Both the position numbers and the translations under genes were made by a program. From positions 70,696,300-70,760,299 of the forward strand of contig CM049314.1 in the NCBI GenBank assembly GCA_026874595.1: a DNA stretch of 64,000 bases, written 5' to 3'. Numbering within the stretch: position 1 is the stretch's first letter; every line of letters starts with the position of its first letter. This document shows positions 11,301 through 56,734 of this stretch, in pieces. Below the pieces are notes generated by a model. The model did no database searches. It saw only the letters and a list, made by a program, of their open reading frames with translations, and had not been told where the DNA came from. This DNA comes from Sipunculus nudus (lineage: Eukaryota; Annelida; Sipuncula; Golfingiida; Sipunculidae).

Positions 11301-14300
11301 CCTGGTTATGACCTTAACGTGACCCTGTTTGAATATTCATATTTTGGCTATGTAATATTTAAACCATGACATATTCCGCCTATGAATAACATATTTCGGA
11401 GAAAAAAAGGTACAATCGATTCAGCCTAATTGAATATCGTATGTCACGTGATAATATTCATTTAAGCGACGTATTCAAATAAATGGTGTGTATACCTTCA
11501 AGGTTTTAGCTGTCATTATGATAATATGAACTGACGTTTGATGACATGCGTATTTTTCGCGTTATTCAGAGCGTTCCCGATTATCACTTTTTTTTATTTT
11601 TCTTTTAAGGATTTTTCTTTTCAGGTCATTGATTTATTTACTATGTACATGTACTAATTTTCCGGAACATTTACCCCAATCCTATCTAAAGTGTATTTTG
11701 TTAAATGGTTGCTGTGGATGACTTTCGCGATTTTCAATTTTCAATGTTTCGCGATGGTTAAATTTTCGAGATCTTATCATACAGCTCCTCCACGTATTAT
11801 ATCTTTAATAACATTAGTTATTAAATATGCGCTAAAATAGCTGACATTTTAGGACCCATGGTAACATTGAACGAGCTGGACTTATGTTAACTACTTGCAC
11901 TTAATATAAAAAAATGTTATTATTTATGATAGCAATAATTTATTCATGGATAACATATGGCGAAAAGACTGATTATCATATGTTGACCGACGATTTTTGC
12001 GCATGCGCAGTGATATCAGTTAAAGTGAGGGTACATATCATTGATGACTCTTCATCTGTGTTGATGAGTCATCTTATTCACGAGGCTTAACTTCCGCGAT
12101 ATTTGCCCTTTCGTGAATTGGAACTTTCGCGAACAAAATGCAACCACAGTATGTAACAGACTCTATAATGATATGTGGAAAGGGAAGTAAATAAATAAAA
12201 ACATCCGGGAATTGAAATACAACGTATATCATTGTATAAGTTTGTATAAGTTTGTATAAGTTTGTATAAGTTGTATAAGTTGTATAAGAGAATTTTCAGA
12301 TGATATAATATTGGGATTATTTCGTTTTGCTCATTTTATAATTTCATTGTTATCATAACGAAAGATACTATTTTTCCATCCTCTTTTCAACTCTATATAA
12401 AACAAGGTGTTGCAGGTCGAGATACAAATTTGTTGTAATTTTAAGCAATTAACTTTCCGTTCTTATTATTACCTTAAATAATAAATATCGAGTGCAATAT
12501 TTTCTATACATCTTTAAACAATATTTAATGTGATATATAACACGTAGTAAAATCTTATACATATAGGCTAGCTACAAAACGATTGGCATCGCCTTTTCAG
12601 TGTTCACGATTTATTAATATAATATGGCTTCTGCACGGAATACCCTCATCTTTATTGCTATTAGACGGCCATGAGTACGCAAACAAACCCCGAGCACCTG
12701 TTGTGGGAACGCCCAACACGGAGACGTCAAGGCTGGTGATCTGGTGATACGTTTGTAGTGTCAACGGCCAACCCATAATTAACTAGAATTATGACGCAAA
12801 CCAACCTCTTATTCTTAAATTAAGTAATATAGATTAACAAAAACTCGACCCCCTCAAAATGTAACATTTGGCACAGCGTCATATAAAAAGTTTTGCAATG
12901 TTTCCGTGTGTATCTAATCTTGTATACACTTTGTTGTCCTGTTAACCACTTTATTTCGACATGATAACAGACCAAAGGGGCTGTTGAAAATATTTAGTTT
13001 TTACATGCAATGCATTGACCAACTATTTACATACAGTGTGAAAAATATTAAAACATTAGTGGCCACATCTGCACCATTAGTTTATTATTCATATGCTAAA
13101 AGTTATAACATAATCAAAACCTAGTAGTCAGTGATGCAGTCGAACTACGAGGGCAAGAGTGACACCGGGACCGAGACCTTGGGAGCCACAGTATCCCAGG
13201 ACGAAAGTCTGAGACGTGTTTTTACCAAATGTTATCTACTGCTTTGTTCCATAAAATATCAATGAACCCAATATATTAAGAGTAATAATAATCAATAATA
13301 AATTATTATTAACAGATTGTGTTAGCGGTGTACATTTACAAATGATGGTGAGGGAATAAATAAATAAATGAATAAATAATGAGTCTCTTTTTGCCACGCA
13401 AGTCTCCCCTCCTTAAGGGCCTCCAATACAAAAATTTTAGGGGAAAATATGGAGTAATTCAAAAGTTTGAGGTTTACAAAAGTCCTAGATGTTTTAAGAT
13501 TTAACCTTAAGGATAAAGGTCAAGGTCACCAGTTTTCGAACACATCCGAGATTTTGGTAGAAAAAAAAATCACTTTTCACAGACCACCACTAAATGTCTA
13601 ACCCAAGGAGGGGACATAATAAGCAGAGAAGGCAACATAAACAGAGAGTTAATCACACATACATATAGTTTGTTGCATACTTAATAAAACCTAAATATCA
13701 ACTAGGTTTACATAGAATTATAGAAGGCCACACAAAAATCTGATTGTTTGAAAACCTAGACGAAGAACCTCTGAGGCCAGGGACAAGACCAGGACCTATG
13801 AGACAAAGACCAGGACCGCCTAGACCAAGACCGAGGACTTTTAAGACCAAGACCTCCGAGACTAAGACCTAGACCAGGACCTCCGAGACCAGTACCGATT
13901 AGACCAAGACCTAGACCAGGACTTCCAAGACCAGGACCACCTAGACCAAGACCTAGACCAGGACTTCCAAGACCAGGACCGATAAGACCAAGACCTAGAC
14001 CAGGACTTCCAAGACCAGGACCACCTAGGCCAAGACCTAGACTAGGACTTCAAAGACCAGGACCACCTAGACCAAGACCTAGACCAAGGCTTCCAAGACC
14101 AGGACCGATTAGGCCAAGATCTAGACCAGGGCTTCCAAGACCAGGACCGACTAGATCAAGACCTAGACCAGGACCTCCAGGACCAAGACTTCAGAGACCA
14201 AAACCTACACCAGGACTTCGAAGACTAGGACCGCTCAGACCAAGACATGGACAAGGCCTTCCAAGATCAGGACCTCCGAGACCAAGACCTAGAACAGGAC

Positions 14301-17300
14301 TTCCAAAACTAGGACCGTCTAGACCAAGACCGCCTAGACCTAGGCCGGGACTCCCAAGACCAAGACCTCTGAGACCGAGACCAAAACCAAGACCATATAC
14401 AGGAATCATTGTCTCTATATCTGTCTCGAGACCATCATCACGGCTTGCTACACCCAGCTTTGGCCATCAGCCAAACAATTCAGTCAATATACAGACTTGT
14501 GCGCTTCGACCGTGCTGGTGTTGATTTGAAATGCACAACTACTACTACTTTGAGAGGGCGAGTCACCTGTGTTGCACTTTCGCTTACATTAAAATGATTC
14601 TTTATTTATAGACCCAACACATGGTATTACTCAGTCCCCACAAAATCACTTTACAACGAACTGGAACAAAGTTTACTGATGTTTGTCTGTCTGTTTGTCC
14701 CCTGGTTTGTTCATGAACGAGATCGCTAATGTATTTTTAAAGCAGTCAGTGACCGCATACCTGCACAATCATACTGAATCACCAGAACCGAAATATTTAC
14801 CATATATTATTGGTAATGAAGTACGGAGTTAATGAAGACGTTAACACAGAATATTCCTCGCAATGTTTCAAAAACAGCACTTTTTCTTTTCCGCGGCGCC
14901 CGTTATAAATTGGGTACTGAATTTGTTGCTCATTTAATCAATGTAAAATGCCTAGACGTTCATAAATTCCCCATTTGTGCTTAAACATTATTTTGGCCTC
15001 GTATGCTCAAGATTATTTTCGTTACAAATAAAATGAAATTACGGATATTTTTTTTTATTAAAGGGACATATAATCGTAATCAAGATTTTGCCTATTATTT
15101 CACACTGTCAGTTCAGTTTTGTTTTATACAAAGGTTTCCAAGCAGAACCATCACAGCACACAGTTTCATTTCCTCGCATACGGCTGTTTAACACCTTGTT
15201 ATGACCGTGCGTGTTGTTAATCATAACAAGGTCGCGTGACCGGAGGTCAGATTAATATAAGGGTAACCCGCGGTGTTTCAACCAGCAGAAACATGTATTA
15301 TATATTTTGGCCAAGTCAGTCAGAGCATCTCCTGATTGACACGTGTTGTGGCTCCGCGCTGCACACGGCCCCATGGACTGTGTTCATGTTGACACCTGCC
15401 ATCGCGCCCGGTCCACTGTTTTCAACACTCCTTTACAGGAATAAGCAAATGGTTTCAAGGCATTATTTTGGCAGGTACAGATTTATTTAAAGGGAAGAAA
15501 CTATTTTTTGTATTAACACAACATGCTTAATAGGTGATTGGGCCCCTTTAATTAATTTTTTTTAGGTAGAGGGCCCACATTTTGCCCTAGTCGAACATAT
15601 GACGCCTTTATGACGAATGGTTCAGCACAACAGTCTCATTAACAAGCTCCAAGAATTAACAATACATATATATTCTGCCCACCGTGGAAAGAACAGTACG
15701 GTACAATCACGCCATGTATAATATATATCTGAAATCACACGTATCAACTCCAGCTGCAGGAATATAAAAGTAACCACAAATAAATTCATATTAATCCAGC
15801 GACCACCATCCCCTGCCCACATAAAGTTTCACAGAAAAAAAAGCATTCTGTCCAAATTAAAGGAATATTCAGATACACAGATTAATAAACACACACACAA
15901 ATATATCTGATTAACTTTTTTAAAGTGAAAGTAGTTCTTATTTTCTCGTGCTCGCACATTGTACATTTTAACCCGAAATGTCCATGGCCATTGTGAGGCT
16001 TCCGAGCATCCTGGTGAGCCGACGGTAGACACATGTAAGTCCTTGGTGCGGTTTTACACTGCGGTGGGCTACTTTCACTCAAATTCAGATTCGAGGGCAT
16101 CTGCCCCTGATAACGACTTACATTTTTTATATTTCCGTTTCGTGTAAATATGTTGCCCAGGAGAAGGCAAGCACGTGGAATTACCTGTTATGAAATATAT
16201 AACAAAAACCCAATTATATTGATTAAAATGTTGTTTGACTCCGCTAACAATGATTGGTTTATTGTAATATACGGCCACTAACCGCGAAAATAACTGGTTT
16301 ATTCTTATACAAGGTCACAACCTACTAACAATGACGGGTTTATTGTTATGCAAGGTCACAACCCGCTACAAATGACAGGTTCTTTGTTATGTACGGTCAC
16401 AACCCGCTACACGTGACTGGTTTATTGCTGAATACGGCCACAAGCCGCTAACAATGACTGGCTTATTGTTATATACGGTCACAACTCGCCTGTTAGACTA
16501 GTTTAATGTTATGTACGGTCACAACCTGCTATAAGGGACTGGTTTATTGTAATGCACGGTCACAACCTGCTAAAATGAATGGTTTATAGATATATACGGT
16601 CAGAAGCCGCTTAACTTGACTGTTTTATTTTTATATATATACGGTCACAACCAGCTTGACATGACTGGATTATTGTCATATACGGTCACAACCCGCTTGA
16701 CATGACTGGTTTATTGTAATATACTGTCACAGTCCGCTAAAATGACTGGTTTATTGTGATATACGGTCTTAACCCGCTAAAAATGATTAATTTACTGTTA
16801 AATACAGTCATAATGACTGTTTTCAATTACCTGGTTTCAGACATAGAACTTAATTAGATTTGATAATTTAATGTTCATGGCATAAGTAATAACACCGTCA
16901 GAAATGTCGCAGACATCTGCATAACTAAAACACAGACCCATAGATTTAATTGGTCTGTCACGCCGACATCTTCAGAGCATAAACTTCCACTTTGAGGCTC
17001 CCTGGCTTGGGATCATGATACAGGTAGCAACTGACATGACTCTCTGACATTGGTATTTCCTGATAGGAACCTTGAAGTCATGACATACACTAAAACTTAC
17101 CACTCGAGATTCTCCAAAACGGTCCTGGTGCTTGTATTCCAGATATTTTTTTTTTTATGCCTGTATACTACGCTTCTTCAATAAGTAAAACTGATAAACG
17201 TAACGGAGGCATCAGTCCTTAGTGGTTTACTTAATTAGTAATCCTACGCTTTGGAGCGTATCTGAAAGCATGGAGGGGCGCATTCTGCAAGTGTACCCAG

Positions 17301-24341: not shown

Positions 24342-26164
24342 ATGGCTGCGTCCGAAGAGATTAATCTGTTCGTTGATTTCCTAATTTGTGGAAGAAGGCG
24401 GTCTCAACATAATCCACGTCAACTGATATGCAAGCATGGATTTTTGTGAAAACTGCCTGCTGTCTACCACAGCTCTGTTCACTGAAGGCTTTATACAATG
24501 TCCTGCATGCTGGCGCAAGACAGAGTTTAAAGGAAATAACATAACGGCACTTCCAGCCGATGAAAAAGTTCAGCTCGCTGATAAAGCACGAAAGGTTTGG
24601 AGTGCAGGCTACTCATGCGCCATATGCATGACCAAGGGATCGTTAAAGAAAGCATACGCCCAATGTTTGGACTGCGAATTCAAATTATGTGAAGAATGCG
24701 TCAGGTCCCATCGCACAAAATAAACCTTTGCAAACCATGTGATCATTGAGGACCTGTGTAAACTGCACATCCGTAATTTCACTAACGCTTGCTTGACCTG
24801 TCACAAGGGACTTTGTTATGAATGTGTCAAATTCGAATTCCATGAGAACCATGAGGTTTGTCACATTGAAGAGGTAAAAGAAAAGGTTTCACCCCTGATG
24901 GCTGAGAAGCAAACCCTCATGAGATCGGAAATAAAAGAAGTAGATGATATACTTGACATGACGATGGACAAAGCAATGAAGTCACTTGCAAAACGGAGAA
25001 AAGAGAATGAAGAATAGCTTGAAATGTATAAAGCCAAATTGCTCGAGGATATTACAGACTCTAAGGGCAAACGTGATGAGCAATTCCATAAGGCAATGAC
25101 AACTGTACTTAAAAAACAGAACTCTGTTTCTTCGACAGCATCCAATTGTTTAAATGAGATCAGCGTCATCAAAGATGAAGGGAAACTAAGCAGCCTATAT
25201 CAACTTACTCAGACAAGCAGCCGGATATTCAAGTCAGTCAATGCCCTGCGTGTAACCAAAGCGATGCCGGTGCTGCAACCGATTCTAGCCGAGGATGATT
25301 ATGTTACTTAGAGTGAAACTGAAGAAGGAAAGTTTGCATTTCAAGTTTCTTTAGATCAATTCTACCTGCTTTCGAGTAAACCGAAGACAGTTTTGAAACT
25401 TGCCAAACTGCCAAAAGAGAAAAAAAACTTTTGAGAGTTTATGGTCACTTTTGGCTCTACAAGATGGCTCAGCGGTAGTAGCAGATAGCTCAACTGATTT
25501 TGCAGCTAGAGTCAGCGACACTGGAAAAGAACTTCGCAGAAATCATTCACCCACGAAGGTACAAGTGCGAGGACTAACCACCCACCATAAGGACATTTAT
25601 ATATGGTCACGGAGCGGAGATGTTCTACTCCCTGTTCGCGGAGAGGAAACAATATCCATCGATTTAGAACCCAATGTTAAAAATATATCCGGACTGGCCA
25701 TACGTGATGATCAAATTCTCCTCGTTGATAATGCCCGAACTCTGCGAAAATACAACTTGCAAGGTGAATTGTTACATATTTTGGCTACAAGGCGATTATA
25801 ATCTGTTACAGTTGCTGAACACCCCGAAGTAGGCACAGTTTATCTCGTACTTGAATATAATAAGAACCATCTGCAGGTATTGAGACCAGATGGTAGTTTA
25901 GTAAAAACATTTGGCGAGCAAGGAGATAAAGATGGTCAATTTAGTGATATCAGAGATACAGAGGTGTTACCCAACGGCCACATTCCAATGGCTGATAAGA
26001 AGCTGGGCAGAGTTTCCGAGTTCCGATTTGATGGAACATTCATTCGACATCTTCTTACTCAAGATGATGGTTTAGAAAAACCAGTAGGTATCAGTTTCTC
26101 TTATCCACACCTCTGGGTTGCTTGCTACAGGGCAGCATTTCTGTTTGAATGGAAATACTCATAG
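24342..26164 (+). pseudogene. TRIM-like (RING/B-box/coiled coil/NHL-like) pseudogene
   Basis: In order: a RING remnant (CKHGFCENCL and CPAC, readable only if one T of the run near 24430 is skipped); a B-box region with CAICMTKGSLKKAYAQCLDC; a B-box 2 with CKLHIRNFTNACLTCHKGLC; a coiled coil rich in Glu/Lys (about 24880-25280); and a C-terminal beta-propeller-like half with NHL-type phrases such as RPDGSLVKTFGEQGDKDGQF. Damage: frameshift near 24430, in-frame stops at 24721, 25015, 25309 and 25799, and a frameshift at an A-run near 25425. The coding part is a single exon preceded by an acceptor-like ATTTCAG. In the family these act as E3 ligases or RNA-binding regulators; this copy should not. 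Confidence 0.82.
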
Positions 26165-26315
26165 TAGGTGAGTGGAAATAACAAGGTGGAAGTAATCATA
26201 GTGAGTGTGTGGAACTAAAGAGGTGGAAATAATCACAGTGAGTGTAAATAATAGGATGGGAATAACAATAGTGTGTGAGCGGAAATAACAAGGTTGAAAT
26301 AATCATAGTAAGTGC
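26165..26315. repeat. degenerate minisatellite after the TRIM pseudogene
   Basis: Repeats of GTGGAAATAACAAGGTGGAA-like units of roughly 40 bp (AATCATAGTGAGTG spacer), four copies. Confidence 0.65.
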
Positions 26316-26572
26316 TTGTAAATTTTTAATGTCAGAAAAAAAAACAAATAATGTATTTATGCATGCTTTTATCAACGCAGAAACGGAAAACTTTTTCGCA
26401 TCAAACGTAGGATTAAAATGATTTTACCCATTCACTGCCAATCCCATGTTTACCCCGAGTGCTAGGGCCATATCCAGCAGCCCCGAGAGCTGCAGTGGTA
26501 TCAAGCCTAGTATAGGTGATTTGCACCCGGGGAATCATAGTAAATGACGGTATAATCACGGGTATATCTCTG

Positions 26573-26629
26573 AAGAAAAACAACACTGTAAATTTCACGG
26601 GATGCGACCCGATCATCAGGTGAATGTGG
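26573..26629 (-). ncRNA. broken hammerhead-ribozyme copy, left arm of inverted repeat
   Basis: On the minus strand it carries ATTCACCTGATGA, the CGGG/CCCG helix and GTGAAA, identical to the intact motif at 26748-26795. It lacks the 15 bases that form helix III and the cleavage side, as if lost between two GTGAA repeats. It should not self-cleave. Confidence 0.6.
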
Positions 26630-26741
26630 TGAGAGTTTACGAGATTACGAGATTATGCTTTGTGCGATTCGGGGCGGGGGAGAGGGGGGGGGGGGGGAAT
26701 GGGGGTCTCGGCTTTTCAAACCACGCCGTTAGCTTCATACT

Positions 26742-26870
26742 AACCACATTCACCTGATGATCGGGTCGCATCCCGTGAAACAGACTGTTGTGAATTTACA
26801 CTGTTGTTTTTCTTATACCGCTCTGGCTTAGTCTGTAGGCCATAGAGCACTTTACATCGGAGGGTAATAC
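26742..26870 (+). mobile_element. Penelope-like element terminal fragment (solo pLTR piece)
   Basis: After the hammerhead motif comes a GCTCTGG...CCATAGAGCACTTTACAT segment. It parallels the reverse complement of the ends of the PLE copies at 29-31.5 kb (GCTCTGGTTATACCATAGAG then CACTTTGCC). It ends next to a (TA)n tract. No PLE coding sequence remains upstream. Confidence 0.6.
26748..26795 (+). ncRNA. hammerhead ribozyme, type I, complete fold
   Basis: Read directly: helix I ATTCAC/GTGAAT (6 bp), core CTGATGA (26754-26760), helix II CGGG/CCCG with loop TCGCAT, core GAA (26777-26779), helix III ACA-GAC-TGT, and cleavage triplet GTT with predicted cleavage between 26789 and 26790. The only oddity is a T-T apposition at the base of helix II. 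All invariant core bases of the hammerhead family are present. Hammerheads are known in PLE terminal repeats, and this one lies in such a fragment. Self-cleavage is inferred, not shown. Confidence 0.72.
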
Positions 26871-26874
26871 TACC

Positions 26875-26875
26875 T

Positions 26876-26925
<50 letters not shown>
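26875..26925. repeat. (TA)n microsatellite
   Basis: TA run directly after the PLE terminal fragment. Confidence 0.9.
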
Positions 26926-26926
<1 letters not shown>

Positions 26927-27478
26927 TTCGTTTATATATATTACTTAAACTTGCATAAACTAGCATAAACTTGCTTTTACTAATCAAGTACTCATTGTTC
27001 TGGCAGTCGCTGTACAAATTTACTGTTTGTCCTATGAGGCAATCGAATAACACGTAGTGAAGCTTAAATTCCTAGGTTCATATACTGATAGGTGTACAAG
27101 TAGACTCATATGTGGCATTAAACGTAACAGAGATAGAATACCACTCTGTTTATCCATTGCTTAACAGTAAACATTATATATTGTATGTAACCGATTACAT
27201 TTATCCAATATTTATGATGTATCATATATCAAACATGCACGTGGTGGCTTATCAGTGGACTGGTTAAAAAACCGCTGTTGTGTACAATATATTATCTAAA
27301 GATCACGTGACATCTTTTGTCGGTGTAATTGGCTGTAACCATAGAGTGATTAAAGTTTTTTAACAACAGTAGAGTCGGTAAAATGTAAGGTAACTTTCTC
27401 ATTTTGATACTTTTCCGATCGAGTTTCTGCGGTAGAGAATATAAAACTAGCAATCAGGAAAAAAATCAAATTATGCGT

Positions 27479-27479
27479 A

Positions 27480-27517
<38 letters not shown>
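27479..27517. repeat. (TA)n microsatellite
   Basis: About 18 TA units. Confidence 0.9.
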
Positions 27518-27924
27518 ATATCTGCAGCATGTGTCATTTCTCTCTTAGATAGTTTTTCTTAGAACAAGTAGTATGTATTTAAAAAAAGTTTCTTTTAAAT
27601 GCAGTCTAATTAAAAAAATGTTATTTCAAAACATTGAAAAATATTCTGTTTGCTTTTTATATGATAAGTCTATTTACATTTACTGATAAGCTGTTTCTTT
27701 GTTTTCAATTCATAATGAACTTTAAACCTTTATTGTGTCAGAGGACCTCAACATAACCCGGACACTCATAACCTAGCATTATGGGTAAATAACAATGACA
27801 CACTCGGAACCTGGGTGAACATGATACAAATTCAGAGTAGTCAATCACAGATCCATTTCACATGCATTATGGTCATTAGAAATTGTTTATCTAACATATA
27901 TATACAGCCAATTTCTGTACCTTT

Positions 27925-28012
27925 TCACTTGACACCTGATGAAGAAGCTATAAGCTTCGAAAGTTCGTGGTTGAATTAAACAGTTAGTCAACACTAATGC
28001 GTCTTCATCCAG
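27925..28012 (+). mobile_element. possible PLE 3' end with hammerhead-like core
   Basis: CTGATGA at 27936-27942, then GAAGC/GCTTC helix (loop TATAA) and GAAA, the layout of a hammerhead core; helices I and III are weak. CTGATGAAGA is also nearly complementary to TCTTCATCCAG at the far end. A (TA)n tract follows directly, as after the other PLE ends here. Suggestive only. Confidence 0.35.
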
Positions 28013-28013
28013 T

Positions 28014-28073
<60 letters not shown>
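28013..28073. repeat. (TA)n microsatellite
   Basis: TA run abutting the preceding PLE-like terminus. Confidence 0.9.
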
Positions 28074-28075
<2 letters not shown>

Positions 28076-28282
28076 TTTTCAACATGTATATTTAAATTTA
28101 TTTGAAAGGATAAAATTGTTTTATGACGCTGTTTTCTGCATATTTTGTATATATTCAAATTAATTTTACTGTTTTGCTGTTGCAAAACCTTGTTTTGTTC
28201 AACTTCATGTATAAAATCCAGAAGCCAGTTTATATTGGTCATGCCATCAGTGTCCCTAATGTGTGTTAAAGCTGTCATAAAT

Positions 28283-28311
28283 TATGACTATTTTTTTTTT
28301 TTTTTTTTTTT
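28283..28311. repeat. poly-T run
   Basis: About 25 consecutive T in an otherwise featureless AT-rich stretch between 28.1 and 28.9 kb. Confidence 0.8.
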
Positions 28312-28931
28312 GCTTTATTATAAATACGATAATCACTTTGAAATTATGATTGAGAACATAGTCTTTGGATAACTAGGTGGAATTAAAAAAAATGCAGCGC
28401 GACAAGACCAGTCGAGAAATTTAACTGTTCAAAGATGAAGAACGAGATAGAGCGACATATAGACATGTAAACTTAATTTCAATGACAACGCATATGTGTA
28501 TATACTACAACCAGTCTGGATTATATACTTATTATATTCATTTCATACTGGTAAAAGATATTATAAAATAGCATTATTTTACATGTTTCATATTTTTAAT
28601 CATAATATCTCCTTTATCGCAAACACATATACATATAAAGTTGTCTTTTGTCACTTAACCATGCACCACATACTTAATTAATGAATTCCTTGTTGCCTTT
28701 GACTTTTCTTAAAAAGACAAGATCAGTATGAGAGATTAATGGAAACAGAAACAAATAACAGACAACCCTCAGTTCTTATTGGACTTGAGATACATAGTCA
28801 AACAAGTTACCAATGACAAGAATTGCAAAAAATGCAATGAAGAATACTGATCTCTCACAGTAAATGAATGGCTTTTCATGTGTGATATAAAACGAGATGA
28901 TATATGTTAATTGTGCACATACAACTAGGGG

Positions 28932-28934
<3 letters not shown>

Positions 28935-28972
<38 letters not shown>
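28935..28972. repeat. (TA)n microsatellite
   Basis: TA run just outside the 12-bp direct repeat that bounds the PLE dimer. Confidence 0.9.
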
Positions 28973-28974
<2 letters not shown>

Positions 28975-28982
28975 CATACACA

Positions 28983-28994
28983 TATACATAAATA
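28983..28994. repeat. target-site duplication, left copy
   Basis: TATACATAAATA, repeated exactly and in the same orientation at 33321-33332 on the other side of the PLE dimer. Confidence 0.75.
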
Positions 28995-29109
28995 AATATG
29001 TACAATTGTTCTTTCTAGGCTGTTGGCAATGTACTGAAGGCAAAGTGCTCTATGGTATAACCAGAGCGTATCAATATATATCATGTATAAGGAATCAAAC
29101 GATTGTAAG

Positions 29110-29165
29110 CATCGTGTTTACTAATCAGTTTCGTACCGTTGTACGGCACTCATCAGAACGATATG
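29110..29165 (-). ncRNA. hammerhead ribozyme motif in PLE copy 1
   Basis: Minus strand: helix I CATATCGTT/AACACGATG (two 3-bp segments around a 3x3 internal loop), CTGATGA (29156-29150), helix II GTGCCGT/ACGGTAC with loop ACA and one G-T pair, GAA (29132-29130), helix III ACT-GATT-AGT, cleavage triplet GTA. All core positions fit a minimal type I hammerhead with a very short helix III. It lies in the non-coding 3' part of the element, downstream of the endonuclease stop. Confidence 0.72.
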
Positions 29166-29247
29166 AATGAAGGGGTTGTACATTGAACAACTGGTTGTTC
29201 ACTGGAGCGTGTTTGTGGTTATTACAATGTGGATTTGTACAACGTGC

Positions 29248-31405
29248 CTAATCTGGATTACTCTTTGTGCTAAGTTTACGTAACAGGAATTTGTTAGCGT
29301 GTCTGCAACTTGTTACAAGTTCATTGCGTTGGTTAAGCGTGGCCATGTTTTGTTTACATAAAATGAAATATTTCTCCCACAGGCATAGGTTGCATCTGTT
29401 AGTTTCTGGGGAATGTGCTTTGGCTTTTCTGAGTATTTTCCACTGTATTTCAAATTTGACGTTGTTCTCTTTTAGTTCCCAAATGTATTTGCTGAGTTCC
29501 GTACTATTCCTTTTTTCCGGGTGTCTGAACGATGTTTTATGGTTGTTATATCTTGTTTTGAAGGAGTTTTCCGTGAGACCTATGTACGTTTCATCCGCCT
29601 TTCCGTTTTCTGTACTGACTGTGGCTTGGTATATGACAGATTTTGTGAGGCATTGTCCGGGTGTTGGGCATTCACGGGGATTCCTGCAATTGCATCCGGT
29701 AGATGGCGCTGTACTGTTCCTGGAGATGATACATTTGTTATGGCCTTCTATGTGTTGTTTCAGGTTGGGCATACAACTGTAGCTTATTTTGACTGTATTA
29801 CGGTTGAAAATTTTGTGGAGAACGTGTTTTTTTGGGAATTCTTCGTCCAGGATTTTCAAGAAGGATTGTCCTATGTTGGTGGCGACGTTTTTGCTGAAGG
29901 GTGGGTTGTACCAGGTAATGTTTCTGCGTCGTTTTCTCTTTTGTTGTGTTTGTTGGTCTGAATTGACTTTAAATTGCAGTTGTCATTTAAATCCACTTCT
30001 CCTGAGAGACTCTTGGTATAAAGGGGCGGCTTTGGTGAAGGTTACCTCGTCACACGAAATTTCGCAGAGTCTGTTGTTTATTGATTCTGGTATGTTCCTG
30101 ACTATTCTTGGTGGGTGGTTGGATTTGTGGTTCACGTATGATGGGGTGTTGTTGGGTTTGTTGTATGGAGCGTATTTGCCTATAGTAAGGTTAAATGTGA
30201 CGTCCAGGAAATCTACAACTTTCTTGTTTGCTTCAATTTTTATTTTTAGTCCATGCTTTTTGAATATAGTGTTTAAGTCTTTTTTTTATGTTTTCTATCC
30301 GGCGGGGGGTCGCGTTAATAATCCCAAGTCCGTCGTCCCGGTAAAGCCCGAAGTCGTTGCCATGTTTGCTGGTGATCTCGTCAAGTAGGAATAGGCCGAC
30401 TAGTTCGCAGGTTTCTGCTCCGTCAAAGCTGCCCATCGTCACGTCGAATAACTCAGGTGTGGTCCTTTTCACCCATGGCTGTCCAGAGTGGTACAGGTAG
30501 GCTTTTTTGGAGTGGATGATAATGTTTTGTTCCTCGGGGGTTATCTTGGCATATTTTGTGGCAAATTCTAATGCAGAGTTCAGTAGTTTGGCGGAAATTG
30601 ATGGGTAGAAGTCGACCACATCGAATGTGATGAATGAGTGTTTGTCTTTCTGCCCTATGCTATTAAACCATGATACAACCGCTGTTGTGTTTTTCCACTG
30701 GTTCAGTCCTGTATGTTCCCGGATGTCTCTATTGATTCGTTCCAACAAATGTTTGCTGATTTTTCCAATTTCAGATTTAGTTGGATTGATAAGGCGGCAT
30801 GTTGGGTTGTTGTCGAAATTTGGTTTATGATCTTTCAGAGTTATAAACGCTTCTCTCTTCGCTGTAGTGCTAATTCTGTCGTCCAGTCCAAGTTTTTCGG
30901 AAATATGTTTGGCCTCTAGCTCGATGTTGTGGATAGCTTCCTGGTTCGTCTTCTTGTATGATTTTGTAATGCACTTTTCCAGTAGTTCCGTGTATGTAGT
31001 TTCCTCCAGTTTGTAGTAGTTGTTAGTTTTATCTGCAGGTACTAGCAGTTGGTCTGTTCGTTTTATTTTCTCACGGATGTCTGTTGTTAGCTGTCTTTGG
31101 AACCGGCAGTTGATTTGGCGGAATTTAATCGTTTCGATCATTTGTTGCATTCTTTTCTCAAAGTTTGACATTTCTGGTAAGGAGGGCGGTGTTCTTCTCG
31201 AATTAAATCCAAAGTGTTCTTTATCTTCTTTTGGTTTTGCTTCGGGGTTCAGGTAGAAATAAGCTTTCCATCGCATTCGTTTGCACAGTTGTTCTGTTTT
31301 CTCGATCAGTTTTACCAGGTATTCCCTTCGGCTGGGCAACGGGATGTTTTTGGTGGAGTAGTCGAAGTTTGTAGATTCCGTGCTATCAGTCCTTGCACAG
31401 AGTGC
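29248..31405 (-). pseudogene. PLE copy 1: RT and GIY-YIG polyprotein, two lesions
   Basis: Open from 31405 (just after TGA) through FDYSTKNIPLPSRREYL, ITLKDHKPNF, FDVVDFYPSIS (RT motif A), MGSFDGAETCELVG and FGLYRDDGLG (RT catalytic motif C). An extra T in the T-run at about 30289 (8 T, against 7 in copy 2) shifts the frame. An in-frame TGA at 29983-29985 then separates RT from the linker (KRRRNITWYNPPFS). The GIY-YIG part has CNCRNPRECPTPGQC, SVIYQATV and [17 protein letters not shown], ending at 29248. No start Met is obvious upstream, so the 5' end may also be missing. Domains are certain; activity is unlikely. Confidence 0.88.
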
Positions 31406-31537
31406 TCAACATATTATGGAGCAATAGATACAATTGTTCTTTCTAGGCTGTTGGCAATGCACTGAAGGCAAAGTGCTCTATGGTATAACCAGAGCGTATC
31501 AATATATATCATGTATAAGGAATCAAACGATTGTAAG

Positions 31538-31593
31538 CATCGTGTTTACTAATCAGTTTCGTACCGTTGTACGGCACTCATCAGAACGATATG
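31538..31593 (-). ncRNA. hammerhead ribozyme motif in PLE copy 2
   Basis: Identical to the motif of copy 1, 2428 bp further on. In a transcript of the dimer it lies upstream of copy 1 coding sequence, where it could set the RNA 5' end. Confidence 0.72.
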
Positions 31594-31675
31594 AATGAAG
31601 GGGTTGTACATTGAACAACTGGTTGTTCACTGGAGCGTGTTTGTGGTTATTACAATGTGGATTTGTACAACGTGC

Positions 31676-33320
31676 CTAATCTGGATTACTCTTTGTGCTA
31701 AGTTTACGTAACAGGAATTTGTTAGCGTGTCTGCAACTTGTTACAAGTTCATTGCGTTGGTTAAGCGTGGCCATGTTTTGTTTACATAAAATGAAATATT
31801 TCTCCCACAGGCATAGGTTGCATCTGTTAGTTTCTGGGGAATGTGCTTTGGCTTTTCTGAGTATTTTCCACTGTATTTCAAATTTGACGTTGTTCTCTTT
31901 TTGTTCCCAAATGTATTTGCTGAGTTCCGTACTATTCCTTTTTTCCGGGTGTCTGAACGATGTTTTATGGTTGTTATATCTTGTTATGAAGGAGTTTTCC
32001 GTGAGACCTATGTACGTTTCATCCGCCTTTCCGTTTTCTGTACTGACTGTGGCTTGGTATATGACAGATTTTGTGAGGCATTGTCCGGGTGTTGGGCATT
32101 CACGGGGATTCCTGCAATTGCATCCGGTAGATGGCGCTGTACTGTTCCTGGAGATGATACATTTGTTATGGCCTTCTATGTGTTGTTTCAGGTTGGGCAT
32201 ACAACTGTAGCTTATTTTGACTGTATTACGGTTGAAAATTTTGTGGAGAACGTGTTTTTTGGGGAATTCTTCGTCCAGGATTTTCAAGAAGGATTGTCCT
32301 ATGTTGGTGGCGACGTTTTTGCTGAAGGGTGGGTTGTACCAGGTAATGTTTCTGCGTCGTTTTCTCTTTTGTTGTGTTTGTTGGTCTGAATTGACTTTAA
32401 ATTGCAGTTGTCATTTAAATCCACTTCTCCTGAGAGACTCTTGGTATAAAGGGGCGGCTTTGGTGAAGGTTACCTCGTCACACGAAATTTCGCAGAGTCT
32501 GTTGTTTATTGATTCTGGTATGTTCCTGACTATTCTTGGTGGGTGGTTGGATTTGTGGTTCACGTATGATGGGGTGTTGTTGGGTTTGTTGTATGGAGCG
32601 TATTTGCCTATAGTAAGGTTAAATGTGACGTCCAGGAAATCTACAACTTTCTTGTTTGCTTCAATTTTTATTTTTAGTCCATGCTTTTTGAATATAGTGT
32701 TTAAGTCTTTTTTTATGTTTTCTATCCGGCGGGGGGTCGCGTTAATAATCCCAAGTCCGTCGTCCCGGTAAAGCCCGAAGTCGTTGCCATGTTTGCTGGT
32801 GATCTCGTCAAGTAGGAATAGGCCGACTAGTTCGCAGGTTTCTGCTCCGTCGAAGCTGCCCATCGTCACGTCGAATAACTCAGGTGTGGTCCTTTTCACC
32901 CATGGCTGTCCAGAGTGGTACAGGTAGGCTTTTTTGGAGTGGATGATAATGTTTTGTTCCTCGGGGGTTATCTTGGCATATTTTGTGGCAAATTCTAATG
33001 CAGAGTTCAGTAGTTTGGCGGAAATTGATGGGTAGAAGTCGACCACATCGAATGTGATGAATGAGTGTTTGTCTTTCTGCCCTATGCTATTAAACCATGA
33101 TACAACCGCTGTTGTGTTTTTCCACTGGTTCAGTCCTGTATGTTCCCGGATGTCTCTATTGATTCGTTCCAACAAATGTTTGCTGATTTTTCCAATTTCA
33201 GATTTAGTTGGATTGATAAGGCGGCATGTTGGGTTGTTGTCGAAATTTGGTTTATGATCTTTCAGAGTTATAAACGCTTCTCTCTTCGCTGTAGTGCTAA
33301 TTCTGTCGTCCAGTCCAAGT
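31676..33320 (-). pseudogene. PLE copy 2: 5'-truncated RT and GIY-YIG
   Basis: Starts abruptly at LGLDDRISTTAKREAF within the RT domain. It has the full RT palm (FDVVDFYPSIS, YRDDGLG) and no frameshift at the T-run, so RT reads through to the TGA at 32411-32413. The frame continues after that stop to the GIY-YIG domain ending at 31676. The same TGA occurs in copy 1. One difference in the endonuclease is NSFIT for NSFKT, which changes a conserved Lys. Confidence 0.88.
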
Positions 33321-33332
33321 TATACATAAATA
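33321..33332. repeat. target-site duplication, right copy
   Basis: TATACATAAATA, exact match to 28983-28994, at the point where copy 2 departs from the PLE sequence. Confidence 0.75.
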
Positions 33333-33479
33333 TATAAATGATATTACAAAATATAAACAGGAGTTTAACGTGACCAATTCAGTAAAACGTGACTGACTAA
33401 TATAGGTCAACCCTGTCTTTGCTGTTTCCTTGCGAGCATCAACCCAGTTTATTTTAAAATAATTAGAACCGGCGAATAG

Positions 33480-33640
33480 AAATAATACACAATTCGCAAA
33501 TTTCATGAAGAAAAAATACCGCCAAATCTATGATAAATATTTTGATTTCTTTTCTCATTGTACACAAAGCAGTACGATATAGATGCAGACTTCCCCAGAT
33601 ATGTTGCAACCACATAATACCCTTCAATTTATTTCAAAAT
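33480..33640 (-). repeat. diverged repeat shared with 63530-63690
   Basis: Both read GAAGGGTAT(T/C)ATGTG, then TGCAACAT or TGCGACAT, then a TACTTTGTATAC/TGCTTTGTGTAC block and TTTGCGAAT(T/C)GTGT in the same order. The minus-strand peptides align loosely (EGYYVVAT.L/EGYHVFATSP, then FVYN/FVYK). Could be an old transposon or a duplicated exon; unidentified. Confidence 0.45.
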
Positions 33641-34163
33641 TATAATTAATTATTTTTTATATATTATTTTTAATTATTTCAAAAAAATAAAATAGCACTG
33701 AAAGGTGCTACGAAGGTGTCGAGGTATACGATTATCTTATAGTGTTCCTCCAATGCACCGGTAAATTTGAAAAGTCCTTTGTGGGCAAAGAAAGCTCGAG
33801 CAAAAGTGTTGACATAAAAACAACACAGTCGTTCATACATATAACAACCAAATTTTAAATATTCTCAACCATATAATCGTTCGTCTGTTAATTATGCCAT
33901 AACAAACCGGCATTTTAAAATAAAATGATAATAAAAACCTGAAATCTATAAATGTGTATATATAGATACAAAAGTCAACAAACATCTGTGGCTATACAGG
34001 TGTCACAATTTGATGTGAAATGAGGCTAAAATATCCAAACATGCTATAAAATGCAGCTAAACTATACATTATGTATGATTATATTTTTATATTCCTTACT
34101 TCCAATTGCGTCTACTGAAAAAGCTAAATAAAATATTTTGAACAATGTACGTTGTTATAGTGT

Positions 34164-35011: not shown

Positions 35012-37398
35012 TTAGGGACACATTCCTGTTTCCTCACACAGCTGTCGATATAACCCGTCCGTCTGACGTTGCTGTTCTTCAGTGAACAGATGTCTCCAAT
35101 CACCGATCACACCTTTACGTAGAATTGACGTCCCGGGCTTAAGATACAGCATTCCAACAATTTTCTCATCTCTGCAGGCTGTATCTGGGTTCAGGGTTGG
35201 GGTATTTTTCATGTTGCTGAACTCTGTCATCTTGATAATCTCATCTAACTTCTCTGTTGTGAGCGGCTTCCCGAGAAATTCCGCCATTGTAGATATCCAG
35301 ATTCTGCGGTCCCGAAGCAGATTTTCGTAAGTAATTTGCATAATGTTCGGATTGTCCTTCTGAAGCCAGTATGAACGTACCGTGTCGAAGTAATTGCCAT
35401 ACAAAAGCTGGCCACTGATAAAGTTGTCATAGAAGAAATCCCAAGAACCCTTATACGGGCCAAACACTTTGAGATTTTGGTGAAAATAGTAATACGATAC
35501 CGCCACATCTTTCGGCTCTCGCGAGATGTGCACGATCTTCACGTTTTTGTCACGTGCCTCCGTCGGCAGTTGGTGGTAAAGTACATGGGTGAAGAACACT
35601 TCAGGACGGGGGCAATCTACGGCTTGTTCAACTTTCATCGTTAAGGGTGGAATGGTGTCTATGTGTTCCTCTTGTACCCAAGAATCCAGGTCATCTTGGT
35701 GCAAGATAGCTCTTAAAATTATTGATACCCAGTGGTGGCCTAGAAGAAACGAAAAAATATACAATTTAAAATATACGATCGATTAGGCCTATTCCTATAT
35801 CTAAAAATCAAGATGATCTCTTGGTCCCTTTTTACAAAAAAAAAATAAACATGAGAGAGTCGATCCCACGGTGCACCTGTCAGACAGAACATTTTCAGTG
35901 TTTATAACATGTGGAGCAAAACATGGCCAGCAAGGACATCTATCGGCAATCAGAGGGAACAGAGGTCTGCAAATGAAAAAAGTGAAGTGTTTGTTTACAT
36001 TCTTCCACCAAAAATAGCTAGTGCTTAATCAACAAAACTTTTTTTTCTGTTTGTCAAATTGACATCTCTACCAGTTTCATTACTTACTTGTAAATACACA
36101 GGCTCCTGCATCCTCACAGTGACGGTGTAAACACTTTCTTTGCTATAGTTAACTAACATGTGCCCAGAGTAAGCCACAAATCACAAAGAGCGTCGTTCAT
36201 CCAAAATTCATAACTGAAAAATGGTGACAATTTGTCCGAAATTCTGAGTTTCCAGGACCATTATCAAACATATTGTTGCATGGATTAGCTTCATTAATTC
36301 GTGTCTGTCAGGATCTTGTAAAGTCCGGTGCTCACAGGCAGGTTGGCAAACAATCCCATGTCACCGAACTTTTCGATAAACGACCTTGTACTGTAACTTC
36401 TACAACTTAGGCAAGTGAATAGCTGGCTAGTATTTATAATATTAATAAATACATGCATGCTTACTGAGAAGAGAGAAGGAAAGGGCCTGATCTTTGAAAA
36501 GTAATTAGCTCGGTATATCTATTTTGTTGTATAGAACCGTGGAGGCAAAACATCCTGCTATTTAATGCAAACTTTTCAGAACCGCGCAATATAGCTCCCC
36601 TTATTGTACTGTACGATGACTGTGACGGACTCCGATTCAGTCTTACGGAAAATTTTCTGCAGCGTGACCTCCAACCGGGGTTGTTCATAAAGAGAGGAAA
36701 ATACAATAAATCTTAATCATTTAGGCCCGAATATTTTCCGCGAAGGATAACATCAAATCGTATATAAAATTACGGATGTTAAATAATATCTTTTTATATG
36801 ACACATTATAAAGTGTATAATGCATGATAATTGGCTAAAATATCAGATATATGTTTAGCGTATCATGTTACCACTTAAAGCATGAAGGCACATGCTAACC
36901 CATACATGGCGGCAAAAAAGAGGCACGTGTCGTCCGTTCACATATGTAATATTGCAAGATTTATGGGAGTTCGAAGTTCACTCTTGATCAGCTTGTGTCA
37001 CATAATAAAGTAAAAGCATATTTGACCTTTTATATATATTATATGCACAAAATAAATTTTTTTTCGGTCATTACGTTTCTAGTTTACGCGGTCCTGTACA
37101 TAAAGCATTGGTTCCCTCGTCCACGACGTCGTATGAATATAACTTGTGTTAGGAATATCAACTCGTGACCGCGACAACTCCCTTAATAATTAACTTATTT
37201 GGATCTAAATCATGTATTTCAGTGTTTACCTGATTTCGGGTAGCCACAGACAAACACATCGTCATCGTGTACAGGGAAGTCCAGTATACGGGAAAGTGCG
37301 TCAGGTTTTACGGTCACTGCAAAACGTGTTCCCTGAATCCAATGCTGGCCCGGGAGGGCGTATATTTCATCACGCTCAATTTGATTCTCTGACGACAT
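35012..37398 (-). CDS. cytosolic sulfotransferase (SULT), intact copy A
   Basis: Transfers sulfate from PAPS to hydroxyl or amine groups of small molecules in the cytosol; acceptor unknown. Coding exons 37230-37398 and 35012-35739 join in phase 1 to give 298 aa, the usual SULT length. Motifs: PAPS loop CGYPKSGHHW (the common form is PKSGTTW), FFTHVLYHQLP with the likely catalytic His, HISREPKDVAVSYYYF (3'-phosphate binding), and RKGVIGDWRHLFT (C-terminal PAPS signature). A TTTCTTCATCAG acceptor-like site ends two bases before the ATG, so a 5' non-coding exon probably lies upstream. It is the only copy in the window with both coding exons undamaged. Family is certain, expression unknown. Confidence 0.9.
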
Positions 37399-41600: not shown

Positions 41601-42077
41601 GTGTGTGGGGCTAAATACATATATATACACACCATCTCTCGTGGTGGGATGCATGAGGATTCTCATATACCCACATTACAAACGGTAATGGCGCCCCTGC
41701 AAATCAAATCAAAACTTAAGATTTGCTAAAAAGAGATTATATCAGGTAAAAAAAGAACAGGTATGTTCTATAAGGCACAAAAGGCATAATTTGTTGATGC
41801 ATGATGATGTAAATAAAAAGATCCTAACGCTGATGATTAAACATGGCATTCACCTTTAAAATGTTATTGGTATGAAAAATAAATCTGTTCCTGTAAGACT
41901 TGGCATCAGAGAATAGGCTCCGATTCATGCATACGGAAAATTATCTGCAGCGCGACCTGCACCTAGGGTCGTTCATAACAAGAGGAAAAATACAACAAAT
42001 CTTAATCGTTTAGGCCCGAAAATTCATTGCGAAGAAAACATCAAATCGTATATAAAATTAGTAATTAGTGAAATTAG

Positions 42078-54026: not shown

Positions 54027-54763
54027 TTACTGTGAGGAGTGACACATTCCTGTTTCCTCACACAGCTGCCGATATAACCCATCCGTCTGACGTCGTTGTT
54101 CCTCAGTGAACAGATGTCTCCAGTCACCGATCACACCTTTACGTAGGAATGATGTTCCGGGCTTCAGATAAAGCATTCCAACATTTTTCTTGTCTCTGCA
54201 AGCTGTATCTGGGTTCAGGGTTGGGGTATTTTTCATGTTGCTGAACTCCGTCATCTTGATGATCTCATCTAACTTATCTGATGTAAGCGGCTTTTCGAGA
54301 AATTCCGCTAATTTAGATATCCAGATTCTTGGGTACCGACGAAGATTTTCGTAAGAAAGCTGCATTATGTTAGGGTTGTCCTTCTGAAGCCAGTATGAAC
54401 GTACCATGTTTAAGTAATTGCCATAAAATAGCTGCCCACTGATGAAGTTGTCATAAAAGAAACCCCAAGAACCTTTATACGGGCCAAACACTTTGAGATT
54501 TCGGTGAAAATAATAATACGATACCGCTACATCTTTCGGATCCCGCGATATGTGCACGATATTCACGTATTTCTCACGTGCTTCCCTCGGCAGTTGGTGG
54601 TACAGTACATGGGTGAAGAACACTGCTGAACGGGGGTAATCTACGGCTTGTTCAACTTTCCACGTTAAGGGCGGAACGGTGTCTCTGTGTTCCTCTTGTA
54701 CCCAAGAATCCAGGTCATCTTGGTACAAGATAGCCCTTAAAATCATTGCTACCCAGTGGTTGC
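54027..54763 (-). CDS. sulfotransferase exon 2, copy D (open, partner exon damaged)
   Basis: A full-length open exon of 244 codons plus stop, with the CTATAG acceptor intact and all body motifs: FFTHVLYHQLP, HISRDPKDVAVSYYYF, RKGVIGDWRHLFT. The PAPS loop would continue as G-NHW. It differs from copy A at many residues and ends MCHSSQ rather than MCP, yet has no stop or frameshift. Its own exon 1 (56735-56860) is frameshifted and has lost its 3' end. Either it died recently or it is spliced to another first exon. Confidence 0.8.
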
Positions 54764-56734
54764 CTATAACAAACATAAAAAATATACAATTTAAAGATAC
54801 AATTCAATGGGCCTTTTCCGAAATTTAAAATAAAAATATCATATGTAGGGCCGAACACATACAGCAAACACATCAAGCTGCAGATCAGAATAAACAGAGG
54901 TTTGTAAATGGAAAATACAGTGATGCTTTACATGCTCTCACCAATATATTAACTGCTTAATCAACAAATTTTTTTGGACAAATGGGCATCTGCACCAGCA
55001 TAACTAATAGCTCATAAATAAACAGGCTAATGCACCGGTCACGGTGACCTAACATGTACCCAGAGTGTAAGGCAGAAATTACATAGAGCGTCGTTCATCC
55101 GAAATTTAAAACTTAGAAGCAAAATGTTGACAGTTGTCCGAAATTCTGATTATTGAAGACCATTAACAACGATGATGTTGCATGGACTAGCTTAATTTAT
55201 TTGTGTCTGTCAGGATCTGGTTAACTCCAGTGCTCGCAGGCATGTTGGTAATCGTAGTAAATGTTTAGGACCGTTTTTCCGATCCATCGTTTATCCGAAC
55301 AAAACAAATACACCGAACTATTCCGATAAACAAACCTCATCTGTAACTTCTACAAGTTAGGCAAGTGAATAGCTAGCCATAATATATAATATAAATAAAT
55401 GAATGCATGGTTGTCTAGAACAGAGAAAAAATAGGACTAACCTTTGCAAAGTAATTAGCTCGGTAGGTCTGTTTTGGAAGTTGTAATGTACCTTGGAAGT
55501 GAAACACATCCTCACATTTAATGCAAGATTTTCAAAACCAAGCAATATACCATATACCCTCCCCCCCTTCCTCCCCAATTGACCTATCCACCGCGGCCCA
55601 AATGCTACGCCTTTTAAACATAATTATTATGATGAGCCCCCAGAAATGCTCCTACACAGAAGGTCGTCCTTGCCCATGGTAGCGAGAGCTGCTTACTACA
55701 TAATAATGACGTCACAAAGGTCGATGACGCATGACCTCGTTTTGACTGACGTCTTCAACTGGTATCGCTGTCCTTCATTGTTTAATATATCTCAGTCATT
55801 GTGAACTGTCTTGCAATATTTTGATTACTAGTCTCATGCGAGTTAGATGCTGGGTAAGACATAATTATTTACTCAATAGTCGGAGGGATGGCTCCTGCAA
55901 CCTGTAGACTAGAACTTTTTTTTACTGTCTCCTTTGTATAAAAAAAAATCCCGGAAACATTCCGACATGGGTAATGGTAAAAACCACAGGTGTTCTGTTT
56001 GACAGAGCACTGTCAAATTATGAAAAGTTTTTTTTCGGATGATTGACGCTTTACAATGTTTACGGTCACCTGATTGGTTGCTCGTTAGTCCCATGCTTTA
56101 GATTATTCATTGAATGAATATGCGAATATGCGATTAATGTCACATAGATTTCATGAATAGGTCAATTGTCCTGTACTATGACTGCAACGGGCTCCGCCTC
56201 AGTCATACGGAAAATTATCTGCCGCGCGACCTCCATTCAGGGTCGTTCATAAATAATGGAAAAATATACCAGTTTAGAACGGTTCAGGGCGGATAATTTA
56301 TTGCGATGGAAACATCAAATAAAATCAAATGCATGTTAAATAAAGCCTTCATATAACGCATAATAACGCATATTACGCATGATAATTGACTTAAATATAA
56401 GGTATATGTAAAGCGTATCAGCTTACCACTTAAGGCATCAAAGCACATGCCAACCCTAATACCTGGCGGGAACAAAAAGGAATTGGTCCTCCGTTCACGT
56501 GTGTATTGATGGAAGATTTATGGGAGTTTAAAGGTCACACTCCAGTTGCGGGTTTCATATTATTTAAAGAAAAGTGTATTTGACCAATGAATCTTGTTTT
56601 CGGTCATTTCTTTTCTAGTTTGCGCTGGTGCCTCCATATAAATCATTAATTCACTCGTCCACGACGTTTTATGAATGAAACTTGTGTAAGGAATGTTAAC
56701 TTGTGACAACGACAGTTATGTAGATACAATTAAT

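What the first reader, a model, noticed from the sequence alone, without database searches (positions are those of the whole stretch)
26748..26795. A complete type I hammerhead ribozyme outside any coding element
All three helices and every invariant core base can be read by eye: ATTCAC/GTGAAT, CTGATGA, CGGG/CCCG, GAA, ACA/TGT, cleavage triplet GTT. It sits in a solo PLE-like end with no PLE gene attached, so it could be a non-autonomous ribozyme-bearing unit (retrozyme-like) or a relic. Hammerheads in PLE ends are established knowledge; this sequence variant, with a T-T apposition at the base of helix II, is the part to test.
Basis: partly seen in the sequence, partly recalled or inferred. 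Interest (0 to 1): 0.72.

Follow-up and report, generated by a model that had tools for sequence, protein, structure and literature searches.

The report
Ribozyme relic in a retrotransposon end
A small self-cutting RNA motif (a hammerhead ribozyme) sits in what looks like a leftover end of a Penelope-type jumping element; the motif is real by sequence, but it is an ordinary example of a well-described kind, and its one odd base pair is already known to be tolerated.

Summary
Window 26748-26795(+) has every invariant hammerhead core base and three helices; a descriptor finds it once in the window and in 0 of 150 shuffles. Rfam gives no match, but also missed hammerheads in 7 of 7 control loci. 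A covariance model trained only on viral-contig hammerheads scores it 19.8 bits (E 0.00085, filters off), beside two hammerheads of a neighbouring Penelope-like element (PLE) at 20.5 bits; with default filters it is not listed. Its 3' flank shares three collinear exact blocks with that PLE's ends (0 of 3000 shuffles). It lies in a head-to-head inverted pair, a described PLE arrangement (PMC3846280, passages); the partner ribozyme has lost 14 nt including the cleavage site. The T-T apposition is not new: PMC3088659 reports natural U10.1-U11.1 mismatches, axolotl HHR_Amex2 has one (PMC7229834), and so does one of 31 descriptor hits in fetched loci. Best reading: an ordinary PLE hammerhead in a solo, probably inactive relic. 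The retrozyme reading is not supported. Cleavage, host-genome copies and expression could not be tested.

The parts
26748..26795 (+). type I hammerhead ribozyme; predicted cleavage between 26789 and 26790
   Evidence: sequence; descriptor scan; covariance model R2 19.8 bits with filters off
26748..26753 (+). helix I 5' strand (pairs with 26790-26795)
   Evidence: sequence
26761..26776 (+). helix II CGGG/CCCG with TCGCAT loop and the T26761-T26776 apposition at its base
   Evidence: sequence; descriptor
26780..26788 (+). helix III ACA/TGT with GAC loop; ACAG/CTGT is self-complementary around a central A, so a dimer pairing is possible (inferred)
   Evidence: sequence; self-duplex -6.9 kcal/mol against 0.0 for the isolated 9-mer hairpin
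26796..26872 (+). PLE-type 3' flank: CTTATAC, CGCTCTGG, CCATAGAGCACTTT in the same order as in the neighbouring PLE ends, then (TA)n
   Evidence: three collinear blocks, 29 nt, 0 of 3000 shuffles
26573..26633 (-). inverted, head-to-head copy of the same end; ribozyme broken by a 14-nt deletion (helix III, cleavage site, most of the helix I 3' strand)
   Evidence: inverted repeat; 59 of 61 aligned bases identical apart from the deletion
26634..26739 (.). 106-bp spacer between the arms, with a G run
   Evidence: no other BLAST match in the window at E<=1
28995..33325 (-). neighbouring PLE-like partial tandem: longer unit 28995-31422 preceded on its strand by a 5'-truncated copy from about 33325 to 31423
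   Evidence: copies 2427-2428 bp apart, nearly identical; ORFs
29111..29162 (-). PLE hammerhead, 3'-terminal copy
   Evidence: R2 20.5 bits; core pattern
31539..31590 (-). PLE hammerhead, junction copy
   Evidence: R2 20.5 bits; core pattern

Best explanation
26748-26795 is a type I hammerhead ribozyme of a Penelope-like retroelement, left in a solo head-to-head pair of pseudo-LTR ends. In the parent element it would cut tandem PLE transcripts once per unit, perhaps best as a dimer through the near-palindromic helix III. At this locus it is most likely a relic: no gene, no tandem partner, a broken inverted partner, and a transcript across both arms would form a long hairpin instead of the ribozyme. 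Shown here: motif, covariance-model score, sequence shared with PLE-like ends, inverted pair, deletion. Predicted: the hairpin. Inferred: role in the parent element (the review PMC7761336 calls the in vivo role of PLE hammerheads still a mystery), dimer mechanism, inactivity here. Not testable here: cleavage.
For: Intact core and helices. R2, built without window sequence, scores it 19.8 bits beside two PLE hammerheads at 20.5. The 3' flank shares three collinear exact blocks with the PLE ends: 0 of 3000 shuffles reach it, and the five best of 3168 window segments (those around the focal site left out) lie at the two PLE ends. Both PLE hammerheads lie in the repeated ends of a partial tandem, an arrangement described for PLEs (PMC3846280, PMC11167929; passages). 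Inverted pair with a 14-nt deletion in the partner. Fold of 26576-26797: MFE -108.7 kcal/mol, z -10.7, hammerhead helices at probability 0.0.
Against: No Rfam match. R1 missed it and R2 needed filters off (against 54). The free 48-mer's hammerhead fold is 4.4 kcal/mol above the predicted minimum (-6.9 against -11.3) and its MFE is like that of shuffles (z -0.59). The hairpin is not a clean contrast: without the left arm the energy model also gives helix III 0.002-0.013 in four stretches tried and helix I 0.001-0.151 in three of them (0.865 in the 48-mer), while helix II is 0.45-0.94; with wider flanks (26500-26870) helix III is 0.176. Gapped alignment alone does not separate the PLE ends (46.5) from an AT-rich segment at 33651-33701 (46.0). 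The PLE proteins are identified mainly by motifs recalled from memory: RVT_1 E 0.0043-0.009 below its cut-off, from the truncated copy's frame only; the longer copy's frame gave no RVT_1 at E<=1; no GIY-YIG model. PMC3088659's authors rejected hits mispaired at 10.1-11.1 from their final alignments, many being mutants in repeated elements.
Confidence: 0.8

Rival explanations
1. A non-autonomous retrozyme-like unit that spreads through self-cleaved circular RNA, using PLE enzymes in trans.
For: Intact type I hammerhead with a 3-bp helix III and no gene attached; a PLE-like element with related ends 2.1 kb away.
Against: Animal retrozymes are direct tandem repeats of about 150-450 bp (PMC7229834, passages). 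No direct repeat in 24500-33500 contains the focal site, and BLAST of 26735-26870 against the window finds at E<0.1 only itself, the inverted arm and a 14-mer in the two PLE ends.
Confidence: 0.08
2. A locus where the ribozyme is still active and used, for example cutting a host transcript.
For: The + arm keeps all core bases and helix I while the - arm has the deletion.
Against: The arms differ at only 2 of 61 aligned bases besides the deletion, so preservation says little; the inverted arm would pair with the ribozyme in a transcript covering both; no frame of 110 aa or more spans the site (introns not examined).
Confidence: 0.06
3. A chance match to the hammerhead pattern.
For: No Rfam match; fold energy like shuffles.
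Against: 0 of 150 shuffles; independent covariance model; PLE-end context.
Confidence: 0.03

Closest known systems
Minimal type I hammerheads of Penelope-like elements (Cervera & de la Pena 2014: not held; known here through passages of PMC7761336 and PMC7229834. Lunse et al. 2017: seen only as an entry in a reference list)
   Same: Type I core, short helix III, place in a PLE-like end, possible dimer pairing; PMC7761336 says that many metazoan genomes hold thousands, mostly dispersed in non-coding DNA.
   Different: Helix III (3 bp, 3-nt loop) is more complete than the form said to lack helix III; U-U at the base of helix II.
Axolotl HHR_Amex2 (PMC7229834, passages)
   Same: Type I, weak helix III, a U-U mismatch at the base of helix II; 22% cleavage in one hour as a monomer, more efficient as a dimer.
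   Different: Sits in a retrozyme tandem repeat of about 350 bp, not in a PLE end.
Natural hammerheads with U10.1-U11.1 (PMC3088659, passages)
   Same: Same mismatch at the same position; the paper says it supports more cleavage than any other mispair there.
   Different: The passages read do not mention this sequence or PLEs.
PLE insertions with head-to-head inverted and solo pseudo-LTRs in a rotifer (PMC3846280, passages)
   Same: Inverted head-to-head ends, solo ends without a gene, partial tandems.
   Different: Here a 106-bp spacer separates the two ends; in the rotifer example they overlap by 15 bp. The passages do not mention hammerheads.

Membership tests
Hammerhead ribozyme, type I | Invariant core C3 U4 G5 A6 N G8 A9 / G12 A13 A14 / A15.1-U16.1 / H17 | tested here: met
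Hammerhead ribozyme, type I | Three helices, open at helix I | tested here: met
   complementarity for 6 bp, 4 bp above T-T, 3 bp; not the predicted minimum-energy fold
Hammerhead ribozyme, type I | Standard pair at 10.1-11.1 (usual, not treated as defining because natural U-U cases are in print) | tested here: not met
   T26761-T26776; PMC3088659
Hammerhead ribozyme, type I | Match to a hammerhead covariance model | tested here: inconclusive
   Rfam none, R1 none, R2 19.8 bits E 0.00085 with filters off but not listed with default filters
Hammerhead ribozyme, type I | Self-cleavage | not testable with these tools
   needs an in vitro assay
PLE pseudo-LTR end | Sequence shared with ends of a PLE | tested here: met
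   three collinear blocks, 0 of 3000 shuffles; depends on the neighbour being a PLE (next rows)
PLE pseudo-LTR end | PLE gene attached | tested here: not met
   no frame of 110 aa or more overlaps 26165-29247
PLE (the neighbouring element 28995-33325) | RT and GIY-YIG domains | tested here: inconclusive
   RVT_1 E 0.0043-0.009 below cut-off, one copy only; NCBIfam Drt3a RT E 0.00052 far below cut-off; no GIY-YIG model; motifs FDVVDFYPSI, YRDD, TYIG recognised from memory; AlphaFold models at mean pLDDT 34 and 38 not usable
PLE (the neighbouring element 28995-33325) | Partial tandem with a hammerhead in the repeated end | tested here: met
Animal retrozyme | Direct tandem repeats of about 150-450 bp with the hammerhead | tested here: not met
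   (this window only)
Animal retrozyme | Circular RNA | not testable with these tools
   needs RNA

The most novel reading that the evidence does not exclude
The head-to-head pair with one intact and one broken hammerhead is itself a small mobile foldback unit, carried in trans by PLE enzymes, in which the broken arm acts as a built-in antisense lock on the ribozyme.
Probability: 0.05. Interest if true: 0.5.

Novelty: new member of a known kind. Interest (0 to 1): 0.15.

Why it matters
It adds one more dispersed PLE-type hammerhead and is a reminder that Rfam at its gathering thresholds misses such motifs. The feature put forward as new is already in print. It would matter more only if many copies of the inverted unit existed.

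Tried and rejected
Rfam as a test: no match for the focal site. Control: at gathering, Rfam found no hammerhead in 7 of 7 viral loci that hold descriptor hammerheads. With a relaxed threshold L024 gave 27 and 18 bits to RF00008 and 23.4 bits to RF03152, all below gathering, and the PLE hammerhead gave 10.8 bits, E 8.1. So the Rfam miss carries little weight, though the focal site scored below even that (nothing at E<=10 in 81 bases).

Relatives elsewhere: exact patterns in viral contigs gave 0. In genome contigs the end motif matched 4 bacterial contigs; I read only L126, where the match lies in a bacterial reading frame; R2 gave at most 11.4 bits in the four, so I take all four as chance. PLE RT in viral contigs: 2 weak loci, 38% over 48 residues, no hammerhead pattern. 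Endonuclease: none. RT in phages: none. PDB: one irrelevant match.

T-T frequency: 31 descriptor hits in the 122 loci then held: 29 G-C, 1 T-T (L069), 1 T-A (L109, probably chance); 4 rows are the same or nearly the same as others (L104 as L024, L109 as L052).

Model training: I gave 62 of those 122 loci, picked by me and including most with descriptor hits, to R1; its 30 matches at E<=0.5 trained R2. The weakest (L037, E 0.46) may be false.

Gapped alignment as proof of homology was dropped because an AT-rich segment scored almost as high; exact collinear blocks were used instead, a statistic chosen after seeing the blocks. The (TA)n tract after both ends is weak evidence: the window has several such tracts. 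AlphaFold models were too poor for a fold search. Target-site duplications were not tested.

Full report
Observation. The sequence at 26748-26795(+) is as described: all invariant core bases, a 6-bp helix I, a 4-bp helix II above a T-T apposition, and a 3-bp helix III with a 3-nt loop. A descriptor scan of both strands finds one place, and none in 150 dinucleotide shuffles. Because the descriptor was written after seeing the candidate, I built a covariance model from hammerheads in viral contigs fetched by a generic pattern; no window sequence was used. With default filters the focal site is not listed, the first narrow model missed it, and Rfam does not match it. Rfam at gathering also missed the hammerheads of 7 of 7 control loci.

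Context. A PLE-like element lies at 28995-33325 on the other strand, as a longer unit preceded by a 5'-truncated copy, 2427-2428 bp apart and nearly identical. Its ORFs look like reverse transcriptase and GIY-YIG endonuclease by motifs that I recognise from memory. Profile searches are only suggestive: RVT_1 at E 0.0043-0.009, below its cut-off and from one of the two copies; no GIY-YIG model. Structure predictions failed. Each copy has a hammerhead in its end. Downstream of the focal hammerhead the blocks CTTATAC, CGCTCTGG and CCATAGAGCACTTT occur in the same order as downstream of the PLE hammerheads: 29 nt in chain, 0 of 3000 shuffles (largest 23), and the five best of 3168 window segments, those around the focal site left out, are at those ends. 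So the focal site is most simply the end of a divergent relative of that element.

Inverted pair. The focal end has a head-to-head partner at 26573-26633(-), 106 bp away. The two agree at 59 of 61 aligned bases, but the partner lacks 14 nt that hold helix III, the cleavage site and most of the helix I 3' strand. Head-to-head inverted and solo pseudo-LTRs are described for rotifer PLEs (PMC3846280, passages). Both arms carry the T-T, so most simply it predates the pair. A transcript over 26576-26797 is predicted to fold into a long hairpin (-108.7 kcal/mol, z -10.7) in which the hammerhead helices have probability 0.0. This is not a clean contrast. In four stretches without the left arm, helix III also has a probability of only 0.002-0.013, and in 26500-26870, with the arm, it has 0.176; helix II is 0.45-0.94 without the arm and 0.0 with it.

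The T-T. [quoted passage not shown] the same paper rejected mispairs there from its final alignments. PMC7229834 (passages) describes the axolotl HHR_Amex2 with a U-U mismatch at the base of helix II and 22% cleavage in one hour. Of 31 descriptor hits in 122 fetched loci, one (L069, 5952-6010) has T-T and scores 23.0 bits with R2, which was not trained on it. The variant is known and compatible with activity.

Mechanism. PLE hammerheads in tandem may self-cleave as dimers, and their role in vivo is called a mystery (PMC7761336, passages). In one PLE tested in vitro, hammerhead mutants did not affect insertion, and no RNA-seq reads began or ended at the cleavage site (PMC11167929, passages). 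The focal helix III is nearly self-complementary (self-duplex -6.9 kcal/mol), which fits a dimer, but no tandem partner is present here. The free 48-mer is not predicted to prefer the hammerhead fold (-6.9 against -11.3 kcal/mol), although this energy model ignores the tertiary contacts of the core. I conclude that it is a relic of a PLE hammerhead, probably inactive at this locus.

Limits. The host genome could not be searched, so copy number, family and conservation are unknown. I made no search of the literature for this exact sequence; the seven paper searches were by topic, and no paper was read whole.

Noticed in passing
window 27931-27971 (+): Another hammerhead-like remnant (CTGATGA, helix II, GAAA) that also runs into a (TA)n tract; only 6.0 bits, E 3.4, with R2.
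   Followed up: partly
window 35012-35782 and 54027-54803 (-); repeats at 35468 and 42065: A sulfotransferase-domain frame (35012-35782, Pfam) with a similar frame at 54027-54803 (not scanned) and a third copy of part of it near 42065; the first two lie in a duplication of about 6.6 kb.
   Followed up: no
window 25397-26164 (+): Two adjacent frames separated by a stop that read like one host protein (impression from memory); no Pfam match at E<=0.01.
   Followed up: no
window 13802-14524 (+): A 240-aa frame rich in proline and arginine over a 42-bp tandem repeat.
   Followed up: no
L069 5952-6010: Viral-contig hammerhead with T-T at the base of helix II, about 0.6 kb from a canonical one.
   Followed up: partly
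L016, L024, L062, L069, L071, L090, L100: Rfam at gathering thresholds reports no hammerhead in these seven loci, each of which holds a descriptor hammerhead.
   Followed up: partly
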